A stretch of DNA of 22,854 nucleotides, taken from the IMG/VR virus record IMGVR_UViG_3300042924_000174, positions 1 through 22,854 of that record. One strand, written 5' to 3'. Positions 633 to 22,854 of the stretch are shown here, in pieces. Every line of letters starts with the position of its first letter. Position 1 is the first letter of the stretch. A program made the translations under genes and the position numbers. This stretch comes from a virus. The notes under the pieces were generated by a model. That model saw nothing but the letters and a program-made list of their open reading frames with translations, ran no database searches and was not told the origin of the DNA.

Positions 633-644
633 GAGATAACATTG
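631..644 (+). promoter_or_regulatory. Ribosome binding site fixing a TTG start for the portal gene
   Basis: TAGGAG (630-635) overlaps the terminase stop codon and lies six bases before TTG at 642. No ATG or GTG stands at a suitable distance, and the protein read from the TTG begins with a plausible helical N-terminus. This supports the rare TTG start. Confidence 0.7.
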
Positions 645-2399
645 TTATCAGTCAAAGAAGTTGACGCGAAGCTATCGCGGCTACGTACACGCTCATCAGC
701 GCGTGACCAACGTATGCGTGATGTGCTTTCGGTGCGTCAAGGAGATATCTCAAAGGTATATCCTTCGATGTTTTCAGAGGACTACCCAAAGCCTCTTGTT
801 GCCAACTTCATTGACGTAGCAGCACGTGACCTAGCAGAAGCTATGGCACCACTGCCATCCTTTAACTGCTCAGCAACCAATATGGTTTCAGATTCTGCAC
901 GTAAGATGGCAGATACTCGTACCCGTATTGCTAACTTTTATGTCACCAACTCTGATCTACAACTTCAGATGTATACCGCAGCAGACTGGTATAACACCTA
1001 CGGTCTAGGTATTGGTATGGTTGAGATGGATTACGATGACAATAATCCTCGTATCCGTATGCTCAACCCATTTGGTACATACCCAGAGTTGGATCGTTAT
1101 GGTCGAGTTTTATCTATTAGCCAAGTTATTGTTACCGATGCAGAGACATTGGCTGCACAGTACCCAGAGTTCTACGACCAGATCCTAGGTCGCAATCAGT
1201 ACCAGTTGTCTTCGCCTTATATCTCAATGGTCAAGTACCACGATAAGGATCAGGACCTGCTCTACCTACCAGAGCGTAAGAACCTAGTTCTATCTAACAC
1301 ACCTAACGTATTAGGCAAGCCAATGGCATCTGTCATTATGCGTTCTTCTTTAGATGGAGAAGCACGCGGTCAGTTTGATGATGTACTCTCAGTACAACTT
1401 GCTCGTGCTCGCTTTGCAGTATTGCAGATCCAAGCAGCTGAGAAGTCTATCCAAGCACCTATTGCTATCCCACAGGATGTGCAAGAGTTGGCACTTGGAC
1501 CAGATGCAATTATGCGTTCTGCTAATCCGCAAGGCATCCGTCGTGTACCACTAGAACTACCACCTGGAGTCTTTACAGAGTCTGGCGTTCTTGAGCGTGA
1601 ACTACGTATGGGTGCTCGTTACCCAGAATCTCGCTCAGGAAACATTGACGCATCTGTTGTTACAGGTCGTGGAGTTCAAGCACTACAGGCAGGCTTTGAT
1701 ACACAAATCAAGGCAGCACAAGCACAGTTTGCTCGTATGTTCCAAGAACTTACCGCTGTCTGCTTTGAAGCAGATGAGAAGATCTTTGGTGGTATTCCAA
1801 AGACAATCAAGGGTTCAGATGATGGAACACCTTATGTACTCAAGTACATCCCATCACGCGACATCAAGGGTGAGTACGGCGTAGATGTCCGTTACGGAAT
1901 TATGTCTGGTATGGACCCTAACCGTGCCATCATTGCTTTGCTACAGATGCGTTCAGATAAGCTCGTATCACGTGACTATGTACGTCGTGAGATCCCAATG
2001 GATCTTAACGTGACACAGGAGGAACAACGTGTTGATATTGAAGAAATGCGTGACTCTTTGCGCGTTGCTGTTGCTCAGTACGCTCAGGCGATACCGGCAC
2101 TCGCGGCGCAAGGCCAAGACCCTTCACAGATTATCGGGCGTATCGCATCTGTTATCCAAGGTCGCCAAAAGGGACAAGCCCTAGAGAACGTTATCGAAAA
2201 AGCATTTGCACCAGAACCAGCACCAACCCCAGAGATGCCACCTATGGCACCAGGTATGGAGCAACAGATTCCAGCAGCAGGTGCGGCCCCCGCCCCTGCC
2301 TCGCAGCAACCTCCACAAACACAAGCTGGTTCGGCCCCTGCTGCTGGTCAACGTCCAGATATAGCACAACTACTCGCTGGTATCACCGGCGCAGCATAA
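642..2399 (+). CDS. Portal protein
   Basis: A 585-residue protein directly after the terminase, in the position and size range of phage portal proteins. Portals form the dodecameric ring at one capsid vertex through which DNA enters and leaves and to which the tail attaches. The N-terminal half carries a helical start, the segment SEDYPKPLVANFIDVAARDL, and a beta-rich region with NPFGTYPELD. The second half has a helical stretch with RGVQALQAGFDTQIKAAQ (around residue 345), as expected for the stem and wing region. From about residue 520 the tail is low-complexity Pro/Ala/Gln and probably disordered. The start is TTG at 642. The call rests on synteny, length and overall pattern; I see no single diagnostic motif. 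Confidence 0.8.
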   Translation: MLSVKEVDAKLSRLRTRSSARDQRMRDVLSVRQGDISKVYPSMFSEDYPKPLVANFIDVAARDLAEAMAPLPSFNCSATNMVSDSARKMADTRTRIANFYVTNSDLQLQMYTAADWYNTYGLGIGMVEMDYDDNNPRIRMLNPFGTYPELDRYGRVLSISQVIVTDAETLAAQYPEFYDQILGRNQYQLSSPYISMVKYHDKDQDLLYLPERKNLVLSNTPNVLGKPMASVIMRSSLDGEARGQFDDVLSVQLARARFAVLQIQAAEKSIQAPIAIPQDVQELALGPDAIMRSANPQGIRRVPLELPPGVFTESGVLERELRMGARYPESRSGNIDASVVTGRGVQALQAGFDTQIKAAQAQFARMFQELTAVCFEADEKIFGGIPKTIKGSDDGTPYVLKYIPSRDIKGEYGVDVRYGIMSGMDPNRAIIALLQMRSDKLVSRDYVRREIPMDLNVTQEEQRVDIEEMRDSLRVAVAQYAQAIPALAAQGQDPSQIIGRIASVIQGRQKGQALENVIEKAFAPEPAPTPEMPPMAPGMEQQIPAAGAAPAPASQQPPQTQAGSAPAAGQRPDIAQLLAGITGAA

Positions 2400-2557: not shown

Positions 2558-2584
2558 TTATTTTAATGGAAGGTGTATAGGGTG

Positions 2585-2794
2585 ATGGATCATAATAAAA
2601 TACGTCGCCCTATACGCCCTTCTGATTTCTTAGTAATAGCTACAGAAACTGCATATAACTTATCGCAGGTAGCAACAGGATTCTTTGAATCATTATATGA
2701 ATTAAGTATTTACCATTCTAACCAAAAGACTGAAACCAATCAGGCTTGGGAACAGATGGCGCAAGACCTAGAGACTTTAGAGGAGGACCGATGA
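2585..2794 (+). CDS. Small helical protein of unknown function (69 aa)
   Basis: The frame can start at GTG 2573, GTG 2582 or ATG 2585. I chose ATG 2585 because GGAAGGTG (2568-2575) then lies at normal Shine-Dalgarno distance. The 69 residues have a basic N-terminus (HNKIRRPIRPSDF), then a mostly helical body with aromatic residues, and an acidic end (LETLEEDR). There is no membrane segment and no recognised family. Its stop overlaps the ATG of the next gene (ATGA at 2791-2794), which indicates translational coupling. Its place between portal and the giant virion protein suggests a minor virion or assembly role; this is inference. Confidence 0.6.
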   Translation: MDHNKIRRPIRPSDFLVIATETAYNLSQVATGFFESLYELSIYHSNQKTETNQAWEQMAQDLETLEEDR

Positions 2795-3213
2795 CAACAG
2801 CACCAATGAATCCATTGGCTGGCCCAGCAGGTCCTGGCAAGTATTCTACACGTACAGATAATCTACAGATGGGTTCTATCGCTTACGGTGAAGGCGTTGA
2901 GACAGCCGCTATTAAATCCGGTGCAGCCCTTGCCTCTACTCCAGATGTAAAGGGTACTCCTGCATCTGCTGTACGCCAAGCAGCACTAACACCTTTATAT
3001 GCACCAACAGAACGCCCAGATACGCCCGTTACAGAAGGTATTGATATGGGACCAGGTGCAGGATCTGAAGCGATTGTAATGCCCCAGGAAGATGATACAA
3101 ATTTTCGTACCGCTATCTCAGAGTATATGCCTGTATTAAACTTTATATCAGATCAGCCCAACACCTCACCGGAAACACGAGCAGCTATTAAGAGACTATT
3201 GGATAACCTGTGA
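2791..3213 (+). CDS. Hypothetical protein in the portal-to-giant-protein interval (140 aa)
   Basis: Start ATG 2791 is set by a perfect AGGAGG at 2781-2786; a longer open frame from 2746 has no such site and overlaps the previous gene more. The protein is rich in Ala, Pro, Gly and Thr in its first 100 residues, including NPLAGPAGPGKY and TPVTEGIDMGPGAGSEA, and so is probably disordered. A short folded helix follows (TAISEYMPVLNFIS) and then a C-terminal TSPETRAAIKRLLDNL helix. The last helix might be a docking element for a larger partner. The stop overlaps the GTG start of the giant protein gene (GTGA, 3210-3213). I do not recognise a family. Confidence 0.65.
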   Translation: MTTAPMNPLAGPAGPGKYSTRTDNLQMGSIAYGEGVETAAIKSGAALASTPDVKGTPASAVRQAALTPLYAPTERPDTPVTEGIDMGPGAGSEAIVMPQEDDTNFRTAISEYMPVLNFISDQPNTSPETRAAIKRLLDNL

Positions 3214-6200
3214 GTATATGGAATCGAATTGGCGATATAGCCACAACAATAGGAAAAACAACAGCAAGTTCAGCAGTTAATCTTGCCAAATGGGGCGGAG
3301 AAATTGCTGGAGCCGTTGGCGGAACAGCACGCTTTGCTTGGGATGTCGGAACTGCTCCTTGGAATGATGCTGAAGAGTATAACGGTTTTGTTCAACCATT
3401 TAAGACTGCTTCAGAAAAACAAGGCAAAGATATAATCAAGCCTTTTGCATCTGCTGGCGGAGCTATTATGAAGGTTCCTGGTTTACAGGCTGCTCTTCAA
3501 AACTTAGATAAAGTCAACCAAGAAGTTATTCGTGAACCAGCTACAACATTTGCCTTAGTAACAGGTGAGATAAATAGAGAAGCAGTTCGTGGCGAAGGTC
3601 TATTACCTGCAGAACTTGGTTTTTTTAATCCGGACTTGTGGCGCAAAGCCTACAAAGGCGCTCAAGAGATTTCATTTGGTCAAGCGGTAGTAGGTGGAGG
3701 GCGCTCTTTCTATGACCCAAAGTTTAATATTTACGATCCAGCACAGCGTGATGCAGCTTTTAAGAAAAGCGCTTGGGGTAAAGCCTTATCTGGTGGATTT
3801 GATTTAGGTATTCAGTTCTTTGGTGATCTTACAGTCGTTGGAGCCAAGGTTGGTAAAGTAGTAAAGGCTAGCGAACTAGGCGTTGGTAAACTAACTAACG
3901 CTAATGCGGTAGCAAAGGCTGCAGAAGATATTACCAAGGCTCAATATGGCGTTAATAACCGCTTTTCCAAAGTACTCGATGATTTTACAACTAACGATTC
4001 TGTCTATGCACTTAATCACCCAATGGTTAAGTCCTCATCTGAGCCAGCGTTATTAGCACACTTGCTAGGTGACTCTGTAGATCGTGATGAAACAGCAATG
4101 ATTCTACGTTCTGCACTGGGTGATCCAGCAGCAATGGATGAATTACGCCTACAACGCGCATATATTACAGATGCTTTAGAAGCAGCTCGTGGTGATTTAG
4201 ATACAGTTACAGAGTTTAAGCTCTTTGCAGCTCCAGATGGTAGCGGTATGCTCCCATTCTTAAACGATGACCCTGCGGTTATCAAGGCAGCGCAAGATAA
4301 CTATTCATCTTTGATTGCATCCGATAAATACTTTGCCAAGTTTATGCAAATTGGTGAAGGTGGCGGTACACTTACACGCACAACCGGTAAGGGTTTACAA
4401 GGCGCAGAAGATTTCGTAGCAAAAGCGCGTGCAATTAAATTTTACGATCAAGCAGTGGGTGCTTCCAAGGTAGATGTCTACCAGCCAACACCATTTCACA
4501 GACTATACCAAAAGGTTTCTTGGCTAGGCGGAGAACGCCCTGCTGGACTTGTTGACTTTAACGATGCTGACTCATATCGTGAGATCGTAGCAACCCTTAA
4601 TCGTGTTGGTCCAAGCGATGCTATAGCAGGAACACCTGCAAAGGTAAGACGTTTAGGTCTTCTAACTCAAGAGCAGTCAAACAATTTACTTAACGACTAC
4701 ATTGGTGCTGCTACACCAGAAGCGCGTTTTATTGCAACCCAGAATCTTGAGGAAACTGTATTGCGATCACTTGCTGCAAAGCACGGCATTGAAGAAGAAG
4801 CAATAAATACTCTTTACAATGATTACAAGGGTGCTCGAACATCTGCTCTTAAGTCAATGCAAGATCGTGGTTTTATGGTAGATACTGATGGCAGCATTAT
4901 CAAAGTTCAGCAGTTAGAATCTCAGAGCGCAAACTTCTTACCATTGATGGATTTTGATTTAGCAGATAGAATTATTGGGCGCAACGCTGCAGGTATTAAT
5001 GCCTTCCTTGGCAGAAAAAAAGATGGTTTGTTTAATACCGCTGATCTAGTTCAGGATCTGTTTAAGGCAGGAGCCTTGCTTCGTCTTGGTTATACCCAGC
5101 GTAACGCCATTGATTCTCAGCTTCGTATTGCTGCATCTGTTGGTGCTATGGCATCTCTTCGTCATCTAGGCCCTGGCGTTAAAAACATTGTAAACAATGT
5201 AGGCAGTGACATTTCTAGACTTGTAGATAGAATTAACCCTCTTGGTGAAAGACTAAATTTTGCTGATGTTCAGAAGGCAAGCATTGGTGTTATTCGTGAA
5301 CTTGAAGAACTTAAGTCTAAGATTGGTGCAGGAGAGGCAAAGTTATCTCTTTTCCCAGATGATGTAGATTTAATGGGAGAAGTAAACACTCTCAAGTTAT
5401 TACAAGAAGAAAAACTTGCAGTCTATAATAGCTATGCACAAACTCTTAGCAGCTCAAAGAAGGCAAAGCCTAAAGATCGTATTGGCACAGGCTCTTTTAC
5501 GGTAACTACTTCTGATGGTCAAAAGTATATCCTTGATGATGCATTTGGTGGACCTTTGGGAGAGATGTACCGCAAAATTGCATCTTCTGCTAATTCATTT
5601 GAACGTATGGTAGATAGCAATACTGATATGTATGCCAGAGCGCTTTCCTCAAAAGGCATAGCAGCCATTCGCCCTACAGATCCAGCATACTTTGAGCAGT
5701 GGGCACAAACCCTACGTCAACAGTTTGGTAACTCAGCAGTAGCAAGAAAACTTGCCGGCGGTGAAACTATAGATGATATCTCTCAATGGTTGAGATCATC
5801 TCCTGAAGGCCGCGATTTACGTCGTCGTTTATCTATTGATTCACGTGACTCTGTAGAATATGTCACTCGTATTAGCAACTTCTTCGATACCTACCTGCCA
5901 GTATCTTCAAACCTTCGTAGTAAGTTAAACGATATAACTGCAGATGATTTAAGAACAACCTTTAAGGACCCAACAGATTTGCCTATTATTCACGGTAATC
6001 TTCTTGAGGAAACATTCTTTAACAAGACAGATAATATAGGAAAAAGATTCGTCAATAGCGCCTTTAAGTTACTTGCTACTTTGCCTGAAGACGCTCTAGC
6101 TCGCAATCCTTTATATACTTACTTTTATCGTCAAGAAGTAAAGCGCAGAGTTGATGTTGTAGCCGGACTCAAGGGAGATAGAATCTCAGTAGAAGACCAG

Positions 6201-7898
6201 CAAAAAATTATGTCTGTGGCTCGTAAGGTAGCTCTTCGTGAGATGAAGGGTGTGCTCTTTAATATTGAGCGCAAGACAAACTTTGCTACCTTGATGAAGT
6301 ATATTAACCCATTCTTTTCAGCACAGGAAAACTCATACAAGACTTGGATGAAGTTTGCTGTTTCTAATCCAGCCATTATCAATCGTGGATACCTGTTATG
6401 GCAAGCACCAAACAAGGCTGGTCTTGTAACAGACCAAGATGGCAATATAGTCCCAGAAGGTCAGACATCTGGTAGCGATATTATGTACTTCTCAGTACCA
6501 GAAGGTATAACGCGAGTAATTCCAGGAATGTCTTCGCTTACCGAGTTTGGTATTCCTAAAGCGTCATTGGATATCATTTTCCAAGGTGGTATGGATGCTC
6601 TGTATAGCCAGGGCAACCCTAACTTGTTCAGCGATATCTTTCCAACCGGTCCTTATGTTGCAGTACCTATTGCTGAAATTACAAAGAACCGCCCTGATGT
6701 AAGAGAGACACTTAAGTTTCTGTTTCCATACGGATATCCTAAAGATGTAGCAGGAGGCTTCTTGCCTACTTGGACAAAGAGATTAAGTACTCGCCAAGCA
6801 GGTCAGGATGACCCACAGTTTGCTAGGTCGTATCAGTTAATCTATAACACTGAACGCCAAAAGGCAGCCGAGCAAGGAATCCCTATGCCAAAGCCAGAGA
6901 AGATTCTTAAGATGACTAAGGACTACTGGAACTTGCGTACTGCAGCAGCGCTTATTATGCCATTTGCCCCACGCTTTGACACACCTTACAAGTTCTATCT
7001 TGATAAGTCTCGTGAGTATGATCGCATTTATGGTGTTAACTCCGGTGCTAAGTTCCTTGAAGACTTTCCAGAGTATTTTGAGTTCTCAGCAAGTCTTTCA
7101 AAGAACCCAACTGGAGTACAATCTTCAATAGCTGCCACTAAGAACATCAAAAAGTATGAAGAACTTATTGGTGAGGTAGTTAAGATTGAACCTAAGTTAG
7201 TTGGGTTAATTGTAAATGACCCATCAGGTTATGAGTTCTCACAGTCTGCCTATGACTATCTTTACAAGAAGCGCGTATCGGCAGATGCACCCGATAGATT
7301 CCTTTCCTCACAAAGTCCTGCTGAGTCTCAAAGAAAGACAGATGCTGAAAAGGGTTGGGTTAAATACAATCAATTTATGGAAGTTATTGATGAAGAAATT
7401 AAGTCTCGTGGACTTACATCTATTCAACAAACCGGAGCAGAGGATCTTGCTCTTCTTAAGAGTACTCTTATCAACAAACTAGCAATTCAAACAGATGCTG
7501 AAGGAAAGCCAATACTCAATAAAAAGACCGGTGAGTATGAGTACACAGCTTGGTATATTGACTATAAAGATGATGATGGATCTAAGACTAACCGAGTTAT
7601 TTCAGGCCTTGGCAAGATTCTTACTAACCCAGAGTTTGTTAAGAACAACAGAAATAATACTACCTGGAAGTCTATTGAACAGTACTTGAAATTAAGAAAA
7701 GTAATAGCACAAGAACTTCTTTTAAGAGAAGCAAAATCAATCGAAGCAAAATCAAACAGAGACTTAAAAATGGTTTTTGATGTTGTTGTTAATAAATTAA
7801 AAGACGACGATAAATTAGGATTTACCTACGTCTATGACAGATTCCTGTCACAAGACCTAGTAGTAGATAAGCAGTTAACCGCAAAGGAGACTAAGTAA
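3210..7898 (+). CDS. Giant virion protein, possibly internal/ejection protein (1562 aa)
   Basis: The largest gene in the window, starting at GTG 3210 and overlapping the previous stop. The N-terminus is amphipathic and Ala/Gly-rich (residues 1-50), like a membrane-interacting helix. Around residue 620 is LLRLGYTQRNAIDSQLRI and around 1030 is YINPFFSAQENSYKTW. I associate both patterns with very large structural proteins of actinobacteriophages, which databases label minor capsid, minor tail or unknown. I see no lytic transglycosylase or peptidase motif and no coiled-coil periodicity typical of a tape measure. Size and position in the packaging-capsid block point to a virion component, and a role inside the capsid or in DNA delivery is inference. 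The last ~70 codons are noticeably A-rich and contain a 13-base direct repeat. Confidence 0.6.
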   Translation: MSIWNRIGDIATTIGKTTASSAVNLAKWGGEIAGAVGGTARFAWDVGTAPWNDAEEYNGFVQPFKTASEKQGKDIIKPFASAGGAIMKVPGLQAALQNLDKVNQEVIREPATTFALVTGEINREAVRGEGLLPAELGFFNPDLWRKAYKGAQEISFGQAVVGGGRSFYDPKFNIYDPAQRDAAFKKSAWGKALSGGFDLGIQFFGDLTVVGAKVGKVVKASELGVGKLTNANAVAKAAEDITKAQYGVNNRFSKVLDDFTTNDSVYALNHPMVKSSSEPALLAHLLGDSVDRDETAMILRSALGDPAAMDELRLQRAYITDALEAARGDLDTVTEFKLFAAPDGSGMLPFLNDDPAVIKAAQDNYSSLIASDKYFAKFMQIGEGGGTLTRTTGKGLQGAEDFVAKARAIKFYDQAVGASKVDVYQPTPFHRLYQKVSWLGGERPAGLVDFNDADSYREIVATLNRVGPSDAIAGTPAKVRRLGLLTQEQSNNLLNDYIGAATPEARFIATQNLEETVLRSLAAKHGIEEEAINTLYNDYKGARTSALKSMQDRGFMVDTDGSIIKVQQLESQSANFLPLMDFDLADRIIGRNAAGINAFLGRKKDGLFNTADLVQDLFKAGALLRLGYTQRNAIDSQLRIAASVGAMASLRHLGPGVKNIVNNVGSDISRLVDRINPLGERLNFADVQKASIGVIRELEELKSKIGAGEAKLSLFPDDVDLMGEVNTLKLLQEEKLAVYNSYAQTLSSSKKAKPKDRIGTGSFTVTTSDGQKYILDDAFGGPLGEMYRKIASSANSFERMVDSNTDMYARALSSKGIAAIRPTDPAYFEQWAQTLRQQFGNSAVARKLAGGETIDDISQWLRSSPEGRDLRRRLSIDSRDSVEYVTRISNFFDTYLPVSSNLRSKLNDITADDLRTTFKDPTDLPIIHGNLLEETFFNKTDNIGKRFVNSAFKLLATLPEDALARNPLYTYFYRQEVKRRVDVVAGLKGDRISVEDQQKIMSVARKVALREMKGVLFNIERKTNFATLMKYINPFFSAQENSYKTWMKFAVSNPAIINRGYLLWQAPNKAGLVTDQDGNIVPEGQTSGSDIMYFSVPEGITRVIPGMSSLTEFGIPKASLDIIFQGGMDALYSQGNPNLFSDIFPTGPYVAVPIAEITKNRPDVRETLKFLFPYGYPKDVAGGFLPTWTKRLSTRQAGQDDPQFARSYQLIYNTERQKAAEQGIPMPKPEKILKMTKDYWNLRTAAALIMPFAPRFDTPYKFYLDKSREYDRIYGVNSGAKFLEDFPEYFEFSASLSKNPTGVQSSIAATKNIKKYEELIGEVVKIEPKLVGLIVNDPSGYEFSQSAYDYLYKKRVSADAPDRFLSSQSPAESQRKTDAEKGWVKYNQFMEVIDEEIKSRGLTSIQQTGAEDLALLKSTLINKLAIQTDAEGKPILNKKTGEYEYTAWYIDYKDDDGSKTNRVISGLGKILTNPEFVKNNRNNTTWKSIEQYLKLRKVIAQELLLREAKSIEAKSNRDLKMVFDVVVNKLKDDDKLGFTYVYDRFLSQDLVVDKQLTAKETK
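7728..7755 (+). repeat. 13-base direct repeat inside the giant protein gene
   Basis: GAAGCAAAATCAA occurs at 7728-7740 and again at 7743-7755. The 15-base period keeps the reading frame and gives a duplicated EAKS motif. It looks like a small in-frame tandem duplication in an A-rich stretch. Confidence 0.7.
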
Positions 7899-8815
7899 TG
7901 GCTTATTCAGAGGCATTAAAGGCGTTTCTTAGATCACAGGGTGTTAGCAACGAAGAAATTGCAAGGATGGAAGCAGAACTTGCTTCTGGTACAACTCCTA
8001 AATCAACACCAAAGCCACCTAAGTCTGGTGTATTCACACGTACCTATGTTAGCAATAATATCCCTGCAGATAGCAGCCTCAAGGATAGTATCAACAAAGT
8101 ATTCCAGCGATACTATGGGCGTGATGCTTTAGAGACAGAAATTACAACCTACTTGCCTATGCTTCAAAGCAGGTACAAGTCAAAGTCTGGTGCTTCTAAG
8201 AGTACTGTTAAAGAAACATACAAAAATGGCGTACTTACCAATACTCAGTATCTAACTGCAGATAACCAAGATCCGACGATCTTCCTTGATGATACAATCA
8301 AGAAGCAACTTGCCAGTGGTGTCCAGGAGATTAACACTCTTAATATTCCTGAAGGTCCTTCAGGCAAGTTCTTCGTACAAATTAAGAACCTTGCATTTGA
8401 TAACGGCATCAAACTGTCAGACAAAGACGCTACATCTTATGCCAATAAGATTGTGGCTGGTCAGGTAGATGAGAGCACTGTCTACAGTACAATTCGTGAA
8501 AGTGCAGCATCAGCGTTTCCGGCACTGGCAGACAAGATTAAGGCAGGATTAGATTTGAAGAATCTTGCTAGTCCTTACATTCAGTCAATGAGTGACATCC
8601 TAGAAATACCAGATACTGCTATTGATCTATTCGATCCACAGATCCGTAGTGCTATGGCCTTTACTCTTCCAGATGGAAAGGTTGGCACTAAGTCAATCTA
8701 CAACTTTGAGAAGGAACTACGCAAGGATGATCGCTGGCAGTATACAAAAAAAGCACGTGAACAAGCAGCTTCTGTTGCTACCACTGTGCTCCGAGATTTT
8801 GGGTTTATGGGGTAA
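7898..8815 (+). CDS. Virion-associated protein of unknown function (305 aa)
   Basis: The start overlaps the preceding stop (TAATG) and has AAAGGAG at 7884-7889. The first 25 residues are helical (ALKAFLRSQGVSNEEIARME), followed by a Thr/Pro/Lys linker. A segment near residues 60-98 (SINKVFQRYYGRDALETEIT) resembles short helical modules in actinophage structural proteins encoded beside the giant protein. The rest is mixed alpha/beta with no catalytic motif that I can see. It forms a tight unit with the giant gene before it and the 390-residue gene after it. I infer that the three products work in one virion substructure. Confidence 0.55.
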   Translation: MAYSEALKAFLRSQGVSNEEIARMEAELASGTTPKSTPKPPKSGVFTRTYVSNNIPADSSLKDSINKVFQRYYGRDALETEITTYLPMLQSRYKSKSGASKSTVKETYKNGVLTNTQYLTADNQDPTIFLDDTIKKQLASGVQEINTLNIPEGPSGKFFVQIKNLAFDNGIKLSDKDATSYANKIVAGQVDESTVYSTIRESAASAFPALADKIKAGLDLKNLASPYIQSMSDILEIPDTAIDLFDPQIRSAMAFTLPDGKVGTKSIYNFEKELRKDDRWQYTKKAREQAASVATTVLRDFGFMG

Positions 8816-9988
8816 ATGATGACAACAGCACCAGAAGATCGTATTCGTGAAATAGCTTCTTTACCGAAAAGAACAGCTCAATCCCCAACCCAATATCCTA
8901 TGGCTGAGATCGTAACCAATACAGGTGAAAAGGTTATGGTCTATACAGATGGTCCACTTGCTGGCCAAGATAAAGATGGCAACTTTCCAATTCAAGCAAC
9001 AGATCCAGCATCATTTGCACCTGAAAACGACGAAGGTGACGGAGCAGGAGCAGGAACAGGGCTTACTGCAGCACAGATTGAAGCACTTGTTACTAGCTAC
9101 ACAAAAGAGCGCCTTGATAAAATGTCTCAAGAGCAAAAGACCGAAGAGCGTCTTAGCGCCTATAACATCCTTAAGATGGAGTTTGACCAGTACGGCCTAG
9201 GTAGCCTAGTAACAGACATTAGAGATTTACTTATTAACGATACTCCTACCTCAGAGTTTGGCTTACGCCTTCGTGGTACAGACGCTTACAAGACAAGGTT
9301 TAAGGCAAACGAGGCACGCATTGCGGCTGGCCTTTCATCCCTTAGTCCTGCTGAGTATGTAGCACTTGAGGATCAGTACCAAAGCGTTATGCGTAACTAT
9401 GGACTTCCTGCCTCTTACTACACCAAGGACTCTACTGGCAAGCAGGTAGGTTTTGAGAAATTTATTGCTGGAGATGTATCCGCTACAGAGTTAGCAGATC
9501 GTATCTCTACAGCACAGAAACGTGTTATTAATGCTAACCCAGAAGTTAGTTCAGCACTTAGAGCCTTCTATCCAGATATCCAAAATGGTGACATCTTGGC
9601 TTATGTTCTTGACCCTTCACAGGGTCTTGAGAATATCAAACGTAAAGTAACCGCTGCTGAAATTGGTGGTGCTGCTATGTCTCAAGGATTAGCAACTAGC
9701 GCAACTCGTGCTATGCAATTAGCAGGTTACGGTGTAGATAAAGAAGCAGCTACTGCAGGATTTTCAACAATCGGTGCAGGATTACAGCGTGGTTCAGAGT
9801 TGGCCGCAATATACCAACAAGATCCGTATACACAAGAAACCGCAGAGTCAGAAGTATTCAAACTTTCAGGAGCACAAGAAGCACGCAAGCAGCGCCAGAA
9901 AGTTACCGGACTTGAGAAGGCTACCTTTGGTGGTCAATCTGGATTAACTAGCGGAGCCTTAGCGCGAGATCGCGCAGGAGGCTACTAA
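8816..9988 (+). CDS. Virion-associated protein of unknown function (390 aa)
   Basis: The start ATG directly follows the upstream stop; a second ATG at 8819 is equally possible, and only a weak G-rich site precedes both, so coupled translation is likely. The N-terminus is Pro/Thr-rich, with a Gly/Ala/Glu linker near residues 70-85. The best conserved-looking block is about residues 142-202, containing DAYKTRFKANEARIAAGL, LSPAEYVALEDQY and MRNYGLPASYY. I recall this pattern from actinophage and podophage structural genes of unknown function. The C-terminal third is Ala/Gly-rich and helical (GGAAMSQGLATSATRAMQLA). It closes the three-gene unit that begins with the giant protein. Confidence 0.55.
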   Translation: MMTTAPEDRIREIASLPKRTAQSPTQYPMAEIVTNTGEKVMVYTDGPLAGQDKDGNFPIQATDPASFAPENDEGDGAGAGTGLTAAQIEALVTSYTKERLDKMSQEQKTEERLSAYNILKMEFDQYGLGSLVTDIRDLLINDTPTSEFGLRLRGTDAYKTRFKANEARIAAGLSSLSPAEYVALEDQYQSVMRNYGLPASYYTKDSTGKQVGFEKFIAGDVSATELADRISTAQKRVINANPEVSSALRAFYPDIQNGDILAYVLDPSQGLENIKRKVTAAEIGGAAMSQGLATSATRAMQLAGYGVDKEAATAGFSTIGAGLQRGSELAAIYQQDPYTQETAESEVFKLSGAQEARKQRQKVTGLEKATFGGQSGLTSGALARDRAGGY

Positions 9989-10113: not shown

Positions 10114-10587
10114 ATGTCCAATTACGAGTACGAGGATGAAGACGACGATATCACTACAAACGATTCGTCGAATGACCTTGTAAAGCAACTACGCAAGGCT
10201 TCAAAGCAAAAGGATAAAGAACTACAAGAGCTTCGTGCTCAGTTTGAAAACCTTAGCAAGGGCCAGCGCGAACGAGCAATTAAGGATGTCCTCGCATCTC
10301 GCGGGGTGAATGGCAAAATTGCTTCATTTATTCCGCAGGACATTGACCCAACTGAAGAGTCACTGTCTAAATGGCTAGACGATTATGCCGATGTATTCGG
10401 CTTTGAATCCAGCCAAACCCAGGCAACACCTAATGTAGATCCGGCTCAAGCCGCTGCGTATAAGAGAATGACTAACACTGCAGATGCTGGCGCTTCGCCA
10501 GAACATAATGCAGACATAATGCAAAAACTTATGAACGCAAACAGCAAAGAAGAGTTGGATGAAGTCATTAGATTGTCTGGACTCTAA
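10114..10587 (+). CDS. Capsid scaffolding protein candidate (157 aa)
   Basis: Encoded directly before the major capsid gene, the usual place for a scaffold. The N-terminus is strongly acidic (about residues 4-13). A charged heptad-like helix over residues 20-55 includes QLRKASKQKDKELQELRAQF, a likely coiled coil. The C-terminal part ends in two helices (NADIMQKLMNANSKEELDEV). Small acidic, helical proteins of this kind guide procapsid assembly and then leave the shell. No protease domain is seen here or next door, so processing by a phage protease is not evident. The strong ribosome binding site at 10101-10110 fits a need for many copies. The assignment is from position and composition rather than a specific family signature. 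Confidence 0.7.
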   Translation: MSNYEYEDEDDDITTNDSSNDLVKQLRKASKQKDKELQELRAQFENLSKGQRERAIKDVLASRGVNGKIASFIPQDIDPTEESLSKWLDDYADVFGFESSQTQATPNVDPAQAAAYKRMTNTADAGASPEHNADIMQKLMNANSKEELDEVIRLSGL

Positions 10588-10616: not shown

Positions 10617-11744
10617 ATGGCCACACCACAAGGTACCCCTACCAGTACTGGTACCATCACCGCACTTGTGCAAGCAGCATACGATCAGTATGTAAGAATG
10701 GCGCTCCGCTCCATTCCTGTAATGCGCTCACTTGCAGATGTAAAGCCAGTACAGCAGGCAATGCCAGGATCATCAGTTGTTTTCTCAATCTACTCAGATC
10801 TTGCACAAGCAACATCTACTTTGACAGAAACATCAGATGTATCAAGCATTGCTCTAGGTAACCCATCACAGGTTACAGTAACTCTGAACGAATACGGTTC
10901 AGCAGTAACAACAACAAAGAAGTTGAACCTCACTTCTTTCAACGACGTTGATTCAGCTCTTGCTGACATCATCGCGTACAACGCAGCAGACTCGATTGAC
11001 AACGTAGTAGGACAGGTACTCTCAAAGGGTACTAACGTTATCTACTCAAACGGTCCATCAGGAACTGCTCCAACTTCATCTGCAACAGTTCTACCAGTAG
11101 ACACAATGACAGTAGCGGATATCCGCAACGCTGTTGTTTCACTACGCACAAACAAGGCATTGCCTCGTATGGGTGAACTCTACGCAGCATACCTCCACCC
11201 ACGTCAGTCAGCAGACCTTCGCGCTGAGACTGGTACAGGCGGATTCCAGGAGCTAACAAAGTACGTAGAGCGTACACCGTTCGTTGCTGGTGCAGTAGGC
11301 GTTATTGAAGGCGCTTTCATCGTTGAGACACCACGTGTCCTCAATGGTCTAAAGCTAGGTACAGGTGCTAATACTACTATTTCACCTACAGTATCACTCA
11401 CTAACGTTGTTGCAACAACAAGCTCTGTAACAAACACAGCGGTTAACGGCACATTCACAATCACTGCTGTTACATCAACAACATTTACCTATGCCCTAGC
11501 AGGCAGCGCAATCTCAACAGTTGCAGACACAGGTACTGTTACATTTACCAACAACTACCGTGCGATCATCGCAGGTCGTGAAGCATTGGCTGAAGCACAG
11601 GCTGCAGACATCTCAACCGTTATCGGTCCAGAGATTGACGCACTCCGTCGTTTCCGCACAATCGGTTGGTACTACTTCGGTGGCTTTGCACGCCTCCGTG
11701 AAGCAGCGCTCTATCGCATTGAGTCTGCAGCAACAAACGGATAA
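10617..11744 (+). CDS. Major capsid protein, N4-gp56-like, with probable Ig-like insertion
   Basis: A 375-residue protein preceded by AGAAAGG (10602-10608). The middle shows the pattern I associate with N4-gp56-type capsid proteins of HK97 fold: AAYLHPRQSADLR (190-202), a GGFQELTKYV block, then VGVIEGAFIVETPRV (227-241). The framework resumes at NYRAIIAGREALAEA (313-327) and ends with RFRTIGWYYFGGFARLRE. Between the two, residues 244-312 are Thr/Ser/Val-rich beta sequence (VNGTFTITAV, STTFTYALAGSA, TGTVTF). This resembles Ig-like modules of phage surface proteins and looks inserted. The protein forms the icosahedral shell. Coding is the most regular of the window, with many copies of preferred codons, consistent with high expression. 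Confidence 0.85.
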   Translation: MATPQGTPTSTGTITALVQAAYDQYVRMALRSIPVMRSLADVKPVQQAMPGSSVVFSIYSDLAQATSTLTETSDVSSIALGNPSQVTVTLNEYGSAVTTTKKLNLTSFNDVDSALADIIAYNAADSIDNVVGQVLSKGTNVIYSNGPSGTAPTSSATVLPVDTMTVADIRNAVVSLRTNKALPRMGELYAAYLHPRQSADLRAETGTGGFQELTKYVERTPFVAGAVGVIEGAFIVETPRVLNGLKLGTGANTTISPTVSLTNVVATTSSVTNTAVNGTFTITAVTSTTFTYALAGSAISTVADTGTVTFTNNYRAIIAGREALAEAQAADISTVIGPEIDALRRFRTIGWYYFGGFARLREAALYRIESAATNG

Positions 11745-16794: not shown

Positions 16795-17153
16795 TGGCAC
16801 ATTACGCATACTTAGATGAAAATAACATTGTTGTTGCCGTAACAGTAGGCAAAGATGAAACCGAACTTATTGATGGTTTAGATACTGAGACCTACTATGC
16901 ACAAGGTACTCCTTACACAGTCAAGCGCACCTCATATAATGGCAACATTCGCAAAAACTACGCAGGAGTTGACTATTACTTTGATGAAGCTCGTGATGCC
17001 TTTATTGCCCCTAAGCCTTACGACTCTTGGGTACTCGATGAAGAAACCTGCCGTTGGCAAGCACCTGTTGCTTACCCTACAGATGGCCTTATGTACACTT
17101 GGAATGAAGAAATTACGGATTGGCAAGCAATTAGGATTGAGGAGTCAGAATGA
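16794..17153 (+). CDS. Fibre-associated small protein (119 aa)
   Basis: ATG 16794 overlaps the adhesin stop (TAATG); an in-frame TTG at 16785 is not needed. It starts MAHYAYLDENNIVVAVTVG, then TSYNGNIRKNYAGVDYYFDE and FIAPKPYDSWVLDEETCRWQAP, and ends YPTDGLMYTWNEEITDWQ. This N-x-R-K-N-Y-A-G plus PKPxxSWVLxEETxxWxAP arrangement is one I have met often in environmental phages beside fibre genes. Its role has not been assigned, with a virion or fibre-assembly role most likely. Overlap with the following fibre gene (ATGA, 17150-17153) supports that link. Confidence 0.7.
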   Translation: MAHYAYLDENNIVVAVTVGKDETELIDGLDTETYYAQGTPYTVKRTSYNGNIRKNYAGVDYYFDEARDAFIAPKPYDSWVLDEETCRWQAPVAYPTDGLMYTWNEEITDWQAIRIEESE

Positions 17154-18036: not shown

Positions 18037-19098
18037 ATGAGATTCCACGTAATAAGCCTGCCACATACACAAACAACTAAAGATTACGTCAACTGCGCCT
18101 ATACCGAAAAGGTAAGACGCTTTTGTATGATGATGAAGAGTCTAGGCCATACGGTCTATCTCTATGCTGGAGATCAGAATGAAGCACCGGTAGATGAACT
18201 TATCACTTGCATCACCAAGGAACAGCAGGATGAAGCACTTGATGGTAAGCACTACACCGAAGCTGCATTTGATAATGCGTTACCACACTGGCAGATCTTT
18301 AATAGCAACGCCATCATTCAACTAGGCAAGCGTCTGCAGAAGAAAGACTTTATCTGCTTGATCGGTGGTGCTTCACAGAAACCTATCGCAGATGCCTATC
18401 CAGAGTATATGAGCGTTGAGTTCGGTGTTGGATACGGTGGAGTATTTAGCCAGTACAAAGTCTTTGAGTCTTACGCTTGGATGCACAGCATCTATGCAAT
18501 GTTTAAGAACCCTACGCTAGTAGATGGAAACTTCTATGATGCGGTAATACCTGGTTACTTAGAACCAGAGATGTTCCCGCTACAAGAGAAGAAGGAAGAC
18601 TACTACCTATACGTAGGTCGTATGGTAGATCGCAAAGGTTTAATTGTTGCACAACACGTCTGTAGAGAACTAGGCGTTAAGTTAATTATGGCAGGTCCTG
18701 GTAATAACCCAAAGATTGAATATGGTGAATGGGTAGGACCAGTAGGACCGGAAGAACGAGCGAAGTTAATGGGCGGTGCTATTGCCCTATTTGCTCCAAC
18801 GCTTTACATCGAACCTTTTGGAAATGTGGTAATTGAGGCGCAAGCCTGTGGAACTCCAACAATTACCACAGACTGGGGAGCCTTCACGGAAACCAACCCC
18901 AACGGAGTTACTGGATACCGTTGCAGAAATGCAATGGAATTTGCAGTAGCAACAGAATGGGTCAAGGACTTAGACCCAGTAGCAATACATAAGAGAGCAG
19001 TAGCGTTGTATTCATTAGAGGCTATTGCACCACAATACGAGCAATACTTTGCAAGACTGCTAACTCTATGGGGAGATGGCTGGTATGAAAGGAAATAA
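18037..19098 (+). CDS. Glycosyltransferase, GT-B fold, GT4-like (353 aa)
   Basis: A retaining GT4-type enzyme that should move a sugar from an NDP- or UDP-sugar to an unknown acceptor. The N-terminal domain (1-170) begins with a strand, MRFHVISLPH. The C-terminal Rossmann domain opens with YLYVGRMVDRKG (190-201), continues with VKLIMAGPG, and carries the E-x7-E donor-binding motif at Glu259 and Glu267 in EPFGNVVIEAQACGTP. Length is normal and no residue is obviously missing. There is no ribosome site and a -10 box lies directly upstream, so leaderless translation is likely. It interrupts the tail genes and may decorate a virion protein or change the host surface; the acceptor cannot be told from sequence. 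Its stop overlaps the next gene (TAATG). Confidence 0.85.
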   Translation: MRFHVISLPHTQTTKDYVNCAYTEKVRRFCMMMKSLGHTVYLYAGDQNEAPVDELITCITKEQQDEALDGKHYTEAAFDNALPHWQIFNSNAIIQLGKRLQKKDFICLIGGASQKPIADAYPEYMSVEFGVGYGGVFSQYKVFESYAWMHSIYAMFKNPTLVDGNFYDAVIPGYLEPEMFPLQEKKEDYYLYVGRMVDRKGLIVAQHVCRELGVKLIMAGPGNNPKIEYGEWVGPVGPEERAKLMGGAIALFAPTLYIEPFGNVVIEAQACGTPTITTDWGAFTETNPNGVTGYRCRNAMEFAVATEWVKDLDPVAIHKRAVALYSLEAIAPQYEQYFARLLTLWGDGWYERK

Positions 19099-19994
19099 TG
19101 CCAACACTAATTGATATGGTTGATGAGGTTCGCTCATCTCTGGCAGGGTATACCTTGCGTCAGGATAGAATATCTTATCTGACATCAGCAATTAATACAA
19201 CAGACCTTGCTATGAACATCGGTTCATCTGCCAACCTTGCTAAAGGCATCATTGAAATTGATGATGAACTGATCTGGATTGATAACTTTAGCCAGACAAG
19301 TAGCACGCTTAATGCAGCTCCAGGCTTTGGTCGAGGATACCAAGGAACATCACCTGCACCTCACAGCCAGTATGCACAGATCACCCTTACTCCAACCTTC
19401 CCAAGGGTAACAATTAAGAAGGCTATCAACGATGTTATCAATAGCCTCTATCCTAAACTCTGGGCTGTCTCTTCTTACACCTTTACCTTTAATGCCAGCC
19501 AGACAACCTATGCCCTGCCTGATGATCTTGAATCAATCCTCTATATGTCTTGGCAGACAACAGGTTCAAGCCTTGAGTGGCTACCTATCAACCGTTGGCG
19601 TGCAGATCCAATGGCAAACGTTGCAACGTTTAATACAACAAACACAGTAAATATTTACGAGAACATCCAGCCTGGTAGAACCGTACAGGTCTACTACACA
19701 ACTACTGCAAATACTTTAGATAACAATACAGATGACTACGCAGATGTAACAGGGTTACCTGAATCATCTGTTGAGGTAGTGATCTTAGGAGCCTGTTACA
19801 AGTTGCTATCTTATGTAGATTCTGGACGTATCAACCTAAGTTCAGCAGAAGCTGATCTAAACGATACCAAGATTCCAAGCAGTGCAGGCGTTGCTTCATC
19901 CCGATACATCTATGCTCTATATCAGCAGAGACTCAATGATGAAGCGCTTAAACTTCAAGACAAGTATCCAATCCGTATCCACTACACAAAGTAA
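19098..19994 (+). CDS. Head-to-tail adaptor or tail-tube-A-like protein (298 aa)
   Basis: AAAGGAA precedes ATG 19098. Residues 1-90 contain DMVDEVRSSLAGYT and IIEIDDELIWIDNF, a start found in many phage structural proteins. The middle (110-220) has a helical TIKKAINDVINSLYP element and SQTTYALPDDLESILYMSW. The C-terminal part is helical with YKLLSYVDSG and YIYALYQQRLNDEALKLQ. The L-P-D-D-L element and the size recall podophage gp11-type adaptor proteins between portal and nozzle. The nozzle-like gene at 21200 supports the idea. Confidence in the exact role is low, but confidence that it is a virion protein is good. Confidence 0.55.
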   Translation: MPTLIDMVDEVRSSLAGYTLRQDRISYLTSAINTTDLAMNIGSSANLAKGIIEIDDELIWIDNFSQTSSTLNAAPGFGRGYQGTSPAPHSQYAQITLTPTFPRVTIKKAINDVINSLYPKLWAVSSYTFTFNASQTTYALPDDLESILYMSWQTTGSSLEWLPINRWRADPMANVATFNTTNTVNIYENIQPGRTVQVYYTTTANTLDNNTDDYADVTGLPESSVEVVILGACYKLLSYVDSGRINLSSAEADLNDTKIPSSAGVASSRYIYALYQQRLNDEALKLQDKYPIRIHYTK

Positions 19995-21199: not shown

Positions 21200-22854
21200 A
21201 TGCCCTACGGCGATGACATTACTGAGGGAATCCCCTATGTACTCTCCAACCCTGCAGGATCTACCGCCTATATTCCAACTGGGCCAGCCTATGAGATAGC
21301 CTTTGCAGGGCTACCGTTCTTTCTTGCAGCATCCGATGAGCAACCTTACCGTCGAGTCACAGCGCAGTATCGCAAGCAACAGATTGACCAGACGCGTGAA
21401 CCTGGTGAGCAGACGCTCACCGGCTGGTGGGTTAGATCTCAATCCTCGTTCCACTTAGGAGCGGGGATTAAGTATTTTGAGCCTATCCAAGAAGAGTCAC
21501 TGCGCTTTCAATACACAGAATCTAAAGGTGTAGATGTCTGGACCAGAGGACAGGCTACTCTGCTTAATGACACTGCCAGTTTCTATACAGGTTCAGCTCC
21601 TGCTCAGATGATCGGTGTTAACGATGGCACCAATGACTGCATCATTGTCAGTGATGGATCAGCACTCAAAAAGATCACAACCGCTGGTTCTTCAAGCACA
21701 TACACACAGGCTGGTACAGCATCTACTATTTACAGCCTTACCACTAACGGTAAGCAATACTTCTTTGTCAATGGTTCGACAGTTCACCGAGGTAATATCT
21801 CTGGCAGTACTAGCGATACCGAAATCTACACAGCCTCTAGCACTACTCGTGCAACTATCCGCTACGTAAAGCAGCGCCTTATTGTCGCTATCGGTCCTGC
21901 TATCTATGAACTTAACGCTAACGCTAGTGCATCAACTGCACTACCTACTGCCTTGTATACCCATCCGAACTCATCTTGGGTCTGGTCTAGCATCTCTGAA
22001 GGACCACAGGCCATCTACATCTCAGGCTATGATCCTAATGGAACATCATCATCTGTCTTCAAGGTCGGCCTAGATGCAACAACTCCTAACTCTCTAGGCT
22101 TTCCAACCCTTGAAACACCTACTGTAATTATTGATCTGCCAACTGGTGAATACATCAATGACTTCGATGTCTATCTTGGTACCTATGCCATCCTTGCAAC
22201 CAGCGCTGGCTTTAGAGTCGGAGTCTCTGATGCAACTGGAGACATCCAGTATGGACCGCTTCTCTTTAGAGATGCTGCCTGTACTGCTATCGCTTTCAAG
22301 GATAGTTATGCCTACATCGCAACAAAGGTAGATGGCGAAGCAGGTCTAGTTCGTACTGATCTATCTACAACTGTTATCGCTAGCGCTCTGTATTTTCCTT
22401 GGGCTTGGGATCTAGTTGCTGCTGGTACTACTGTTACCGCATCTCAGGTTGCTTTCTTTGGCAACTCAGACCGATTAGCATTTGCTACAGGCAATAACAT
22501 TTGGGCTGAGGCAACAACTCTGGTAGCAAGTGGTTACTTGCGTACCGGTTATATCCGCTACAACACACTTGAAACTAAGATCTACAAACTGCTACAAGCT
22601 CGCATTGATACAACCAATGGCGGTATTACGATCCAATCTATTGACTCAACCGATACTGAATATTCTATCGGTGTCTTCTCACAAGGTGAGAGCGTACCTG
22701 AGATCAACGTAAGTTACCCAACTACTTCACAAGAGTATCTTGGCTTTAAGTTTACTATGTCTAGATCAACTGCTGATTCAACCAAGGGGCCACTATTTAC
22801 TGGCTACCAGTTGAAGTCACTGCCAGCAGTTCCCCGTCAGCGCCTGATCCAATA
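21200..22854 (+). CDS. Large tail protein, probable nozzle or hub (3' partial, 551+ aa)
   Basis: An open frame from ATG 21200, with AAGGAG at 21189-21194, running without a stop to the window end (551 complete codons). It begins MPYGDDITEGIPYVLSNPAG, then LTGWWVRSQSSFHLGAGIKYFEP. Next come many beta hairpins with repeated modules such as GVNDGTNDCIIVSDGSALKK, YSLTTNGKQYFFVNGS and RYVKQRLIVAIGPAIYELN, which look like beta-propeller blades. Near the end is YQLKSLPAVPRQRLIQ, a motif I link to large tail proteins of actinophages and podophages, including T7 gp12-like nozzles. It is a structural tail protein with good confidence. The exact place is inferred from the adaptor-like gene before it. 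Confidence 0.68.
   Translation, partial: MPYGDDITEGIPYVLSNPAGSTAYIPTGPAYEIAFAGLPFFLAASDEQPYRRVTAQYRKQQIDQTREPGEQTLTGWWVRSQSSFHLGAGIKYFEPIQEESLRFQYTESKGVDVWTRGQATLLNDTASFYTGSAPAQMIGVNDGTNDCIIVSDGSALKKITTAGSSSTYTQAGTASTIYSLTTNGKQYFFVNGSTVHRGNISGSTSDTEIYTASSTTRATIRYVKQRLIVAIGPAIYELNANASASTALPTALYTHPNSSWVWSSISEGPQAIYISGYDPNGTSSSVFKVGLDATTPNSLGFPTLETPTVIIDLPTGEYINDFDVYLGTYAILATSAGFRVGVSDATGDIQYGPLLFRDAACTAIAFKDSYAYIATKVDGEAGLVRTDLSTTVIASALYFPWAWDLVAAGTTVTASQVAFFGNSDRLAFATGNNIWAEATTLVASGYLRTGYIRYNTLETKIYKLLQARIDTTNGGITIQSIDSTDTEYSIGVFSQGESVPEINVSYPTTSQEYLGFKFTMSRSTADSTKGPLFTGYQLKSLPAVPRQRLIQ

What the first reader, a model, noticed from the sequence alone, without database searches (positions are those of the whole stretch)
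3210..9988. Giant 1562-residue virion protein with two partners placed between portal and scaffold
Three coupled genes occupy 6.8 kb ahead of the capsid genes. Podophages such as T7 carry ejection proteins after the tail genes, so this placement differs. The giant protein lacks obvious tape-measure or lysozyme motifs but has conserved-looking blocks near residues 620 and 1030. It could be a different class of internal or injected protein, or an uncharacterised enzyme.
Basis: partly seen in the sequence, partly recalled or inferred. Interest (0 to 1): 0.6.

Follow-up and report, generated by a model that had tools for sequence, protein, structure and literature searches.

The report
Swappable giant DNA-ejection module of actinophages
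A huge, previously unnamed protein and its partner genes, sitting between the portal and scaffold genes of a short-tailed phage of freshwater actinobacteria, most likely form the machine that carries phage DNA through the cell wall, and related phages repeatedly swap the whole block for very different versions while the genes on either side stay almost the same.

Summary
In detail: three translationally coupled ORFs (1562, 305, 390 aa) lie between portal and scaffold at the stated coordinates. Relatives carry them in the same order: 40 IMG/VR contigs and the Streptomyces podophages of subfamily Beephvirinae. Neither the giant nor its family has a Pfam, PDB-sequence or PDB-fold match. The partner's C-terminal half is the constant module of two Streptomyces-phage proteins whose N-termini are an NlpC/P60 peptidase and an SLT transglycosylase. 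I infer an ejection-protein set that works like T7 gp14-16 or P22 gp7/20/16. Virion location is untested.

The unexpected result is that the set is an exchange cassette. All 51 testable portal-bearing loci hold a giant ORF there (complete ones 1534-1764 aa), in three classes related only at profile level. Class changes at least 20 times on a portal tree. Isolates E7 and F5, which infect the same Planktophila strain, match at 96-98% in the flanks and not at all across the cassette. This identifies the '8 kbp genomic island' of hypothetical proteins left unexplained in PMC10202952. P22 E-proteins set a precedent (PMC10883804).

The parts
642..2399 (+). portal protein (conserved backbone upstream of the cassette)
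   Evidence: tblastn to annotated portal proteins of Beephvirinae
2573..2794 (+). 73-aa ORF at the variable left edge of the cassette
   Evidence: conserved position in relatives, identity 31-93%
2791..3213 (+). 140-aa ORF (phrog_8200); the exchange boundary often falls inside it (about 3066 against L122 and L124)
   Evidence: E7/F5 junction inside the homologous ORF
3210..7898 (+). giant protein, 1562 aa, phrog_10618 family; proposed main ejection (pilot) protein
   Evidence: (E 8e-107)
4050..4169 (+). conserved block, giant residues 281-320
   Evidence: highest identity to Streptomyces homologues
4890..5129 (+). conserved block, giant residues 561-640 (K619..ALLRLGYTQRNxxDS)
   Evidence: invariant residues
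6210..6689 (+). conserved block, giant residues 1001-1160 (NPFFSAQENSYKTW..)
   Evidence: invariant residues
7898..8815 (+). 305-aa partner; variable N-terminus plus constant C-terminal module
8297..8809 (+). C-terminal module of the partner (residues 134-304, phrog_6654), shared with the NlpC/P60 and SLT proteins of Beephvirinae
8816..9988 (+). 390-aa partner (phrog_8424), homologue of Beephvirinae gp13
   Evidence: E 1.8e-91
10114..10587 (+). scaffold-like protein; conserved backbone resumes here
   Evidence: phrog_7813 plus weak scaffolding hits; identity recovers
10617..11744 (+). major capsid protein
   Evidence: Phage_capsid_3 E 9e-17
19098..19994 (+). head-tail adaptor of SU10 type (supports a short-tailed phage)
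   Evidence: PF24175 E 3e-8, above cut-off
21200..22852 (+). conserved large tail protein (phrog_11667), runs off the window

Best explanation
The 1562-aa protein, the 305-aa and the 390-aa proteins (with the 3' part of the 140-aa ORF) form a co-adapted ejection-protein set of a short-tailed actinophage. Inferred mechanism: they are packaged inside the capsid near the portal, leave through the tail at infection and assemble an extension that crosses the cell wall and membrane so that DNA can enter. The giant is the structural body. The 305-aa protein carries a constant docking module at its C-terminus and an exchangeable N-terminal tip, which in relatives is a peptidoglycan peptidase or transglycosylase. 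Shown here: a conserved syntenic set, hydrolase domains on the partner family in relatives, and whole-cassette exchange between phages with nearly identical portal, scaffold and capsid genes, which fits proteins that must work together and face the host envelope or exclusion systems. Not shown: presence in the virion, ejection, or a channel.
For: Same gene order in all relatives examined. Relatives are podoviruses by electron microscopy (PMC9753666), and an SU10-type adaptor is present in the window. The partner's C-terminal module is shared with NlpC/P60 (E 2e-29) and SLT (E 4e-5) proteins just downstream of the giant in Beephvirinae. A giant ORF follows the portal in 51 of 51 loci, with complete lengths 1534-1764 aa despite loss of BLAST similarity. 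Three classes are homologous only by profile (hhalign probability 99.7-99.9, E 8e-27 and 3e-34). E7/F5 flanks are 96-98% identical with an unalignable cassette. Sharp identity breaks lie near 2500 and 10000 in several contigs, with synonymous divergence doubled. Portal and giant trees conflict (AU p from 1.5e-3 to 8e-41), while the 305- and 390-aa proteins largely repeat the giant's groupings and the scaffold follows the portal. At least 20 class changes on the portal tree. L186/L188 have 96% and 94% identical flanks around unalignable cassettes. [quoted passage not shown]
Against: No virion proteomics or structure was found in the held library for any relative. No sequence or fold match to T7 gp15/gp16 was found, though this test was weak (single T7 sequences, models at pLDDT 57-66). 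No strong transmembrane segment in the giant (maximum Kyte-Doolittle 1.1 over 19 residues), whereas gp14/gp16 homologues have membrane-spanning elements. No hydrolase domain is recognisable in the window's own 305-aa partner or in other freshwater partners.
Confidence: 0.7

Rival explanations
1. The giant and partners are injected anti-defence or host-takeover proteins (polyvalent-type or T4 IP / P1 Dar-like) rather than a DNA conduit; frequent swapping reflects an arms race with intracellular defences.
For: Extreme exchange of the cassette on constant backbones is also what such proteins would show.
Against: No enzymatic or polyvalent domain; strict presence and near-constant length in 51 of 51 loci; invariant residues spread over the whole length; linkage to a wall-hydrolase-bearing partner family.
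Confidence: 0.15
2. The giant is a tape measure of a long-tailed phage.
For: Large, largely helical predicted protein; a few weak, non-significant Foldseek rows to tape measures (E 0.3 or worse).
Against: Relatives are podoviruses by TEM (also PMC13097060); SU10-type adaptor in the window; position ahead of scaffold and capsid.
Confidence: 0.03
3. The giant is a capsid-internal structural protein (core, or portal-barrel/scaffold helper) that is not ejected.
For: Placement between portal and scaffold genes would suit early co-assembly with the portal.
Against: Scaffold and capsid genes do not share its exchange history; such fast cassette turnover is unusual for a purely internal assembly part; partners carry wall hydrolases in relatives.
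Confidence: 0.1
4. The apparent cassette exchange is a metagenome-assembly artefact (chimeric contigs).
For: Most sequences are assembled contigs.
Against: Isolates E7 and F5 show the same replacement, and contig pairs return to 90-96% identity on both sides of the cassette, so two matching mis-joins would be needed each time.
Confidence: 0.02

Closest known systems
Beephvirinae (Streptomyces podophages, actinophage cluster BF) gp9-gp13 block, phrog_10618 / 6654 / 8424
   Same: Homologous giant (23-25% identity over 1280 residues), homologous partners, same order portal-giant-partners-scaffold-capsid
   Different: Streptomyces phages carry two hydrolase-tipped partner copies (NlpC/P60 and SLT), an extra gp10 and a tRNA array between cassette and scaffold; the window has one partner of this type, no recognisable hydrolase on it and no tRNA
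Planktophila phages LanE43AprE7 and LanE43AprF5 (PMC10202952)
   Same: Same backbone order and homologous portal, scaffold and capsid; cassette at the same place
   Different: Giants of classes 2 and 3, detectable as homologues of the window giant only by profile methods; published as an 8-kb island of hypothetical proteins
T7 gp14/gp15/gp16 and P22 gp7/gp20/gp16 ejection proteins
   Same: Multi-gene set in the morphogenesis region of podophages, hydrolase domain that moves between members, most variable part of the virion gene set, whole-set exchange (PMC8954989, PMC10883804)
   Different: No detectable sequence similarity to T7 gp15/gp16 (P22 not tested); located ahead of scaffold and capsid instead of after the tail genes; hosts of relatives are Gram-positive actinobacteria without a Gram-negative outer membrane
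Giant (>4,400 aa) proteins of Microbacterium podophages, cluster EK and Burro (PMC7302621)
   Same: Actinobacterial podophages with an oversized, fast-diverging protein of unknown role, virion-associated in Burro
   Different: Nearly three times larger; homology to the present family not tested

Membership tests
phrog_10618 (giant protein family of Beephvirinae) | Sequence homology over most of the length | tested here: met
   hmmscan E 8e-107; tblastn residues 271-1550, E 4e-70
phrog_10618 (giant protein family of Beephvirinae) | Gene neighbourhood portal - small ORFs - giant - partners - scaffold - capsid | tested here: met
Podophage ejection proteins (T7 gp14-16 / P22 gp7, 20, 16 type) | Packaged in the virion and released into the cell at infection | not testable with these tools
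   needs proteomics of virions and of ghosts after ejection
Podophage ejection proteins (T7 gp14-16 / P22 gp7, 20, 16 type) | Adjacent set of several genes in the morphogenesis region of a short-tailed phage | tested here: met
   podovirus morphology of relatives in PMC9753666
Podophage ejection proteins (T7 gp14-16 / P22 gp7, 20, 16 type) | Peptidoglycan hydrolase domain on one member (T7 type; absent in P22) | tested here: inconclusive
   Present on the homologous partners of Streptomyces phages; not recognised in the window partner or in other freshwater partners
Podophage ejection proteins (T7 gp14-16 / P22 gp7, 20, 16 type) | Sequence or fold similarity to gp15/gp16 | tested here: inconclusive
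   hhalign against single T7 sequences gave probability below 1%; Foldseek/VIA gave no such match with models at pLDDT 57-66
Podophage ejection proteins (T7 gp14-16 / P22 gp7, 20, 16 type) | Membrane-spanning or membrane-inserting segments | tested here: inconclusive
   Highest 19-residue hydropathy 1.1, below a usual transmembrane threshold; no dedicated predictor was run
Podophage ejection proteins (T7 gp14-16 / P22 gp7, 20, 16 type) | Much more variable than neighbouring virion genes and exchanged as a set | tested here: met
Tape measure protein | Belongs to a phage with a long tail tube | tested here: not met
   SU10-type podovirus adaptor in the window; homologous phages are podoviruses by TEM
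N4-type virion RNA polymerase | Recognisable RNA polymerase domain | tested here: inconclusive
   No Pfam or PHROG hit to a polymerase; no direct comparison with N4 gp50 was run

The most novel reading that the evidence does not exclude
The block is a long-lived, multi-class ejectosome cassette of abundant freshwater actinophages. At least three giant-protein classes that may predate the split between freshwater and Streptomyces phage lineages circulate by whole-cassette exchange on nearly identical virion backbones, kept diverse by superinfection exclusion or envelope variation, and they serve podophages of Gram-positive hosts, for which I know of no described T7-like ejection set.
Probability: 0.35. 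Interest if true: 0.78.

Novelty: new variant of a known kind. Interest (0 to 1): 0.58.

Why it matters
It gives a testable identity to an unexplained hypervariable 8-kb island in phages of the dominant freshwater actinobacteria (PMC10202952). It proposes a T7/P22-like ejection set for podophages of Gram-positive actinobacteria; [quoted passage not shown] And it offers a natural system, two isolates on one host strain with the same backbone and different cassettes, to ask what drives exchange of DNA-entry machinery: superinfection exclusion, envelope change or something else.

Tried and rejected
1) T7 gp15/gp16 comparison by hhalign: no signal, weak because the T7 side was a single sequence. 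2) PDB and fold searches: nothing significant in PDB (best Foldseek E 0.65). The VIA-align rows concentrate on one helical hairpin near residues 676-758 (best Z 10.3) and look like generic coiled coils; no T7 or P22 ejection protein appears among the listed rows. BFVD hits at E below 1e-3 are uncharacterised or unnamed phage proteins, one of them from Streptomyces phage Manuel. 3) Idea that the 305- and 390-aa partners are paralogues: hhalign probability 10.5%, dropped. 4) Search for the giant in bacterial genomes (prophages): none confirmed, in line with lytic phages. 5) Remote relatives of the two conserved blocks in other named phages: only Beephvirinae, plus an Arthrobacter-phage match at E 4 that is not significant. 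6) Hydrolase domains on other freshwater partner proteins: none reached a cut-off. 7) Literature search for virion proteomics of Streptomyces podophages: nothing relevant found in the held library.
Full report
OBSERVATION. The window is a complete 22,854-base IMG/VR record. Upstream are the C-terminal part of a terminase, a portal and two small ORFs; downstream a scaffold-like ORF and a Phage_capsid_3 capsid protein.

FAMILY. Pfam has nothing for the giant. PHROGs place it in phrog_10618, unknown function, E 8e-107, and the partners in phrog_6654 and phrog_8424. Among named phages only the Streptomyces podophages of subfamily Beephvirinae match by tblastn (29 records, 23-25% identity over about 1280 residues). 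Their order is terminase, lysin, portal, small ORFs, giant (about 1640 aa), gp10, NlpC/P60 'peptidase', 'glycosylase', gp13, tRNAs, scaffold-position ORF, capsid. Forty close relatives in IMG/VR keep the order portal - 73-aa - 140-aa - giant - 305-aa - 390-aa - scaffold - capsid wherever the contig is long enough (one contig lacks a match to the 73-aa ORF), and a profile scan found 318 encoding loci. Near-complete relatives all encode WhiB (11 of 11), an actinophage marker according to PMC10202952. With the homology to Planktophila phages E7 and F5 this makes a freshwater actinobacterial host likely.

PARTNER WITH AN EXCHANGEABLE TIP. Residues 134-304 of the 305-aa protein are homologous to the C-terminal parts of both Beephvirinae proteins whose N-termini are NlpC/P60 (E 1.7e-29) and SLT (E 3.6e-5). 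Across relatives the protein downstream of the giant keeps this C-terminal module while its N-terminal part varies from about 100 to nearly 700 residues. In the window and in the other freshwater copies tested the N-terminus has no recognisable domain. I read the C-terminal part as a docking module and the N-terminus as a variable tip; this is inference.

STRUCTURE. AlphaFold2 with 69-sequence alignments gives largely helical models (residues 561-1562: pLDDT 66, pTM 0.48; residues 1-760: pLDDT 57, pTM 0.32). Foldseek finds no PDB match (best E 0.65), and among viral predictions only uncharacterised or unnamed phage proteins score below E 1e-3, including one from Streptomyces phage Manuel. VIA-align rows concentrate on a single helical hairpin. 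Invariant residues are spread along the chain and include no His or Cys in the listed columns; 83 of 90 giants have no cysteine at all. This looks structural rather than enzymatic.

THE CASSETTE IS EXCHANGED. In close relatives the giant and partners are far more diverged than the flanks: the giant is more than 10 points below the portal in 448 of 780 pairs and more than 10 points above in 4. Synonymous differences rise too (L036: 0.30 in the portal, 0.64 in the giant; L100: 0.34 and 0.69), so stronger protein-level constraint on the portal does not explain it. Nucleotide identity drops sharply just after the portal gene (about 2500) and recovers around the scaffold gene (about 10000) in L011 and L100, and the drop is equally sharp in L018, L036 and L111. 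Portal and giant trees conflict: the giant data reject the portal groups {window, L004, L036, L100}, {L009, L118} and {L026, L033}, and the portal data reject the giant groups {L100, L113}, {L111, L118} and {L013, L036} (AU p from 1.5e-3 to 8e-41; the groups were chosen after seeing the trees). The 305- and 390-aa protein trees repeat the giant's groups {L100, L113} and {L111, L118, L029, L032}, while the scaffold tree follows the portal.

THREE DEEP CLASSES. A portal-first scan looks at the place without choosing by the giant: all 51 loci with at least 3.5 kb after the portal have a giant ORF within 3 kb, complete ones 1534-1764 aa, yet most show no BLAST similarity to the window's giant although their portals are up to 97% identical to the window's. 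The giants fall into class 1 (window and Streptomyces phages), class 2 (39 sequences including E7) and class 3 (F5). They are homologous by profile only: class 1-2 probability 99.7%, E 8e-27; class 1-3 probability 99.9%, E 3e-34; class 2-3 directly not supported (14.8%). The window's giant is thus closer to Streptomyces-phage giants (portal about 44% identical) than to giants on 97%-identical portals. Class changes at least 20 times on a portal tree of 86 (many inner branches are weak, so the exact number is soft). Clean pairs are L186/L188 (flanks 96% and 94%) and L178/L112 (95-97% and 90%), with nothing alignable between. L122 matches the window at 91% up to base 3066, inside the 140-aa ORF, and again only from 8792.

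A PUBLISHED ISLAND EXPLAINED. Planktophila phages E7 and F5 infect the same strain, LanE-43. PMC10202952 reports that they differ mainly by an 8-kb genomic island of three and four hypothetical proteins without homologues in the other phage, and counts it as one of two extremely variable regions. Alignment shows the island is this cassette: shared sequence runs to 8372 in E7 (inside the 140-aa homologue) and resumes at 16922 (end of the 390-aa homologue), flanks 96-98% identical. The two giants (1764 and 1711 aa) are remote homologues of the present one.

HOW IT PROBABLY WORKS. Ejection proteins of podophages are stored in the capsid, leave at infection and build a conduit; [quoted passage not shown] In P22, replacing all three ejection genes by distant homologues works, replacing gp16 or gp20 alone by the Sf6 version fails, and the exclusion protein SieA acts through these proteins (PMC10883804). 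The cassette here shows the matching pattern: a co-inherited set, extreme variability, and cell-wall hydrolases on the partner family. I therefore propose an ejection set with the giant as its body. The selective force (exclusion, envelope variation) is conjecture. That the same host strain is infected by phages with different cassettes shows the cassette alone does not set host range at that level.

LIMITS. Virion location, ejection and channel formation are untested. Sequence and fold links to T7 proteins were not found, though the tests were weak, and P22 proteins were not compared directly. Membership in the T7/P22 families is not claimed; the claim is that it works like them. Burro (PMC7302621) shows that a giant actinobacterial podophage protein can be virion-associated, but homology to it was not tested.

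Noticed in passing
L120:7500-8036 and L121:21199-21735 (Planktophila phages E7 and F5): 178-aa ORF directly after the portal matches the proteasome subunit family (PF00227, E 1.2e-5 in E7, above cut-off); possibly a protease of the proteasome type. Absent at this place in the window.
   Followed up: partly
L123:10373-11011, L124:9999-10739: Some class 2 cassettes have an extra ORF between giant and partner that weakly matches phrog_13037, the family of Beephvirinae gp10, which the window lacks.
   Followed up: partly
L003 (Streptomyces phage JXY1):19134-24065: The giant is annotated as a shortened 1332-aa ORF followed by a separate ORF; a disruption or sequencing error in that record.
   Followed up: no
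window:13894-15507: 537-aa collagen-like (G-x-y repeat) tail fibre; the second hypervariable island of these phages in PMC10202952 covers this kind of gene.
   Followed up: no
window:18037-19098: Glycosyltransferase (PF00534, E 4e-14) inside the tail gene block, highly conserved in some relatives (90% in L016).
   Followed up: no
window:19098-19994: 298-aa protein of unknown function in PHROGs, hypothetical in Beephvirinae records, is an SU10-type adaptor by Pfam (PF24175, E 3e-8).
   Followed up: yes
L137:9413-12076 and L166:10175-12598: Partner proteins of 887 and 807 aa with long unassigned N-terminal regions ahead of the constant C-terminal module; candidates for new cell-wall-active domains.
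   Followed up: partly
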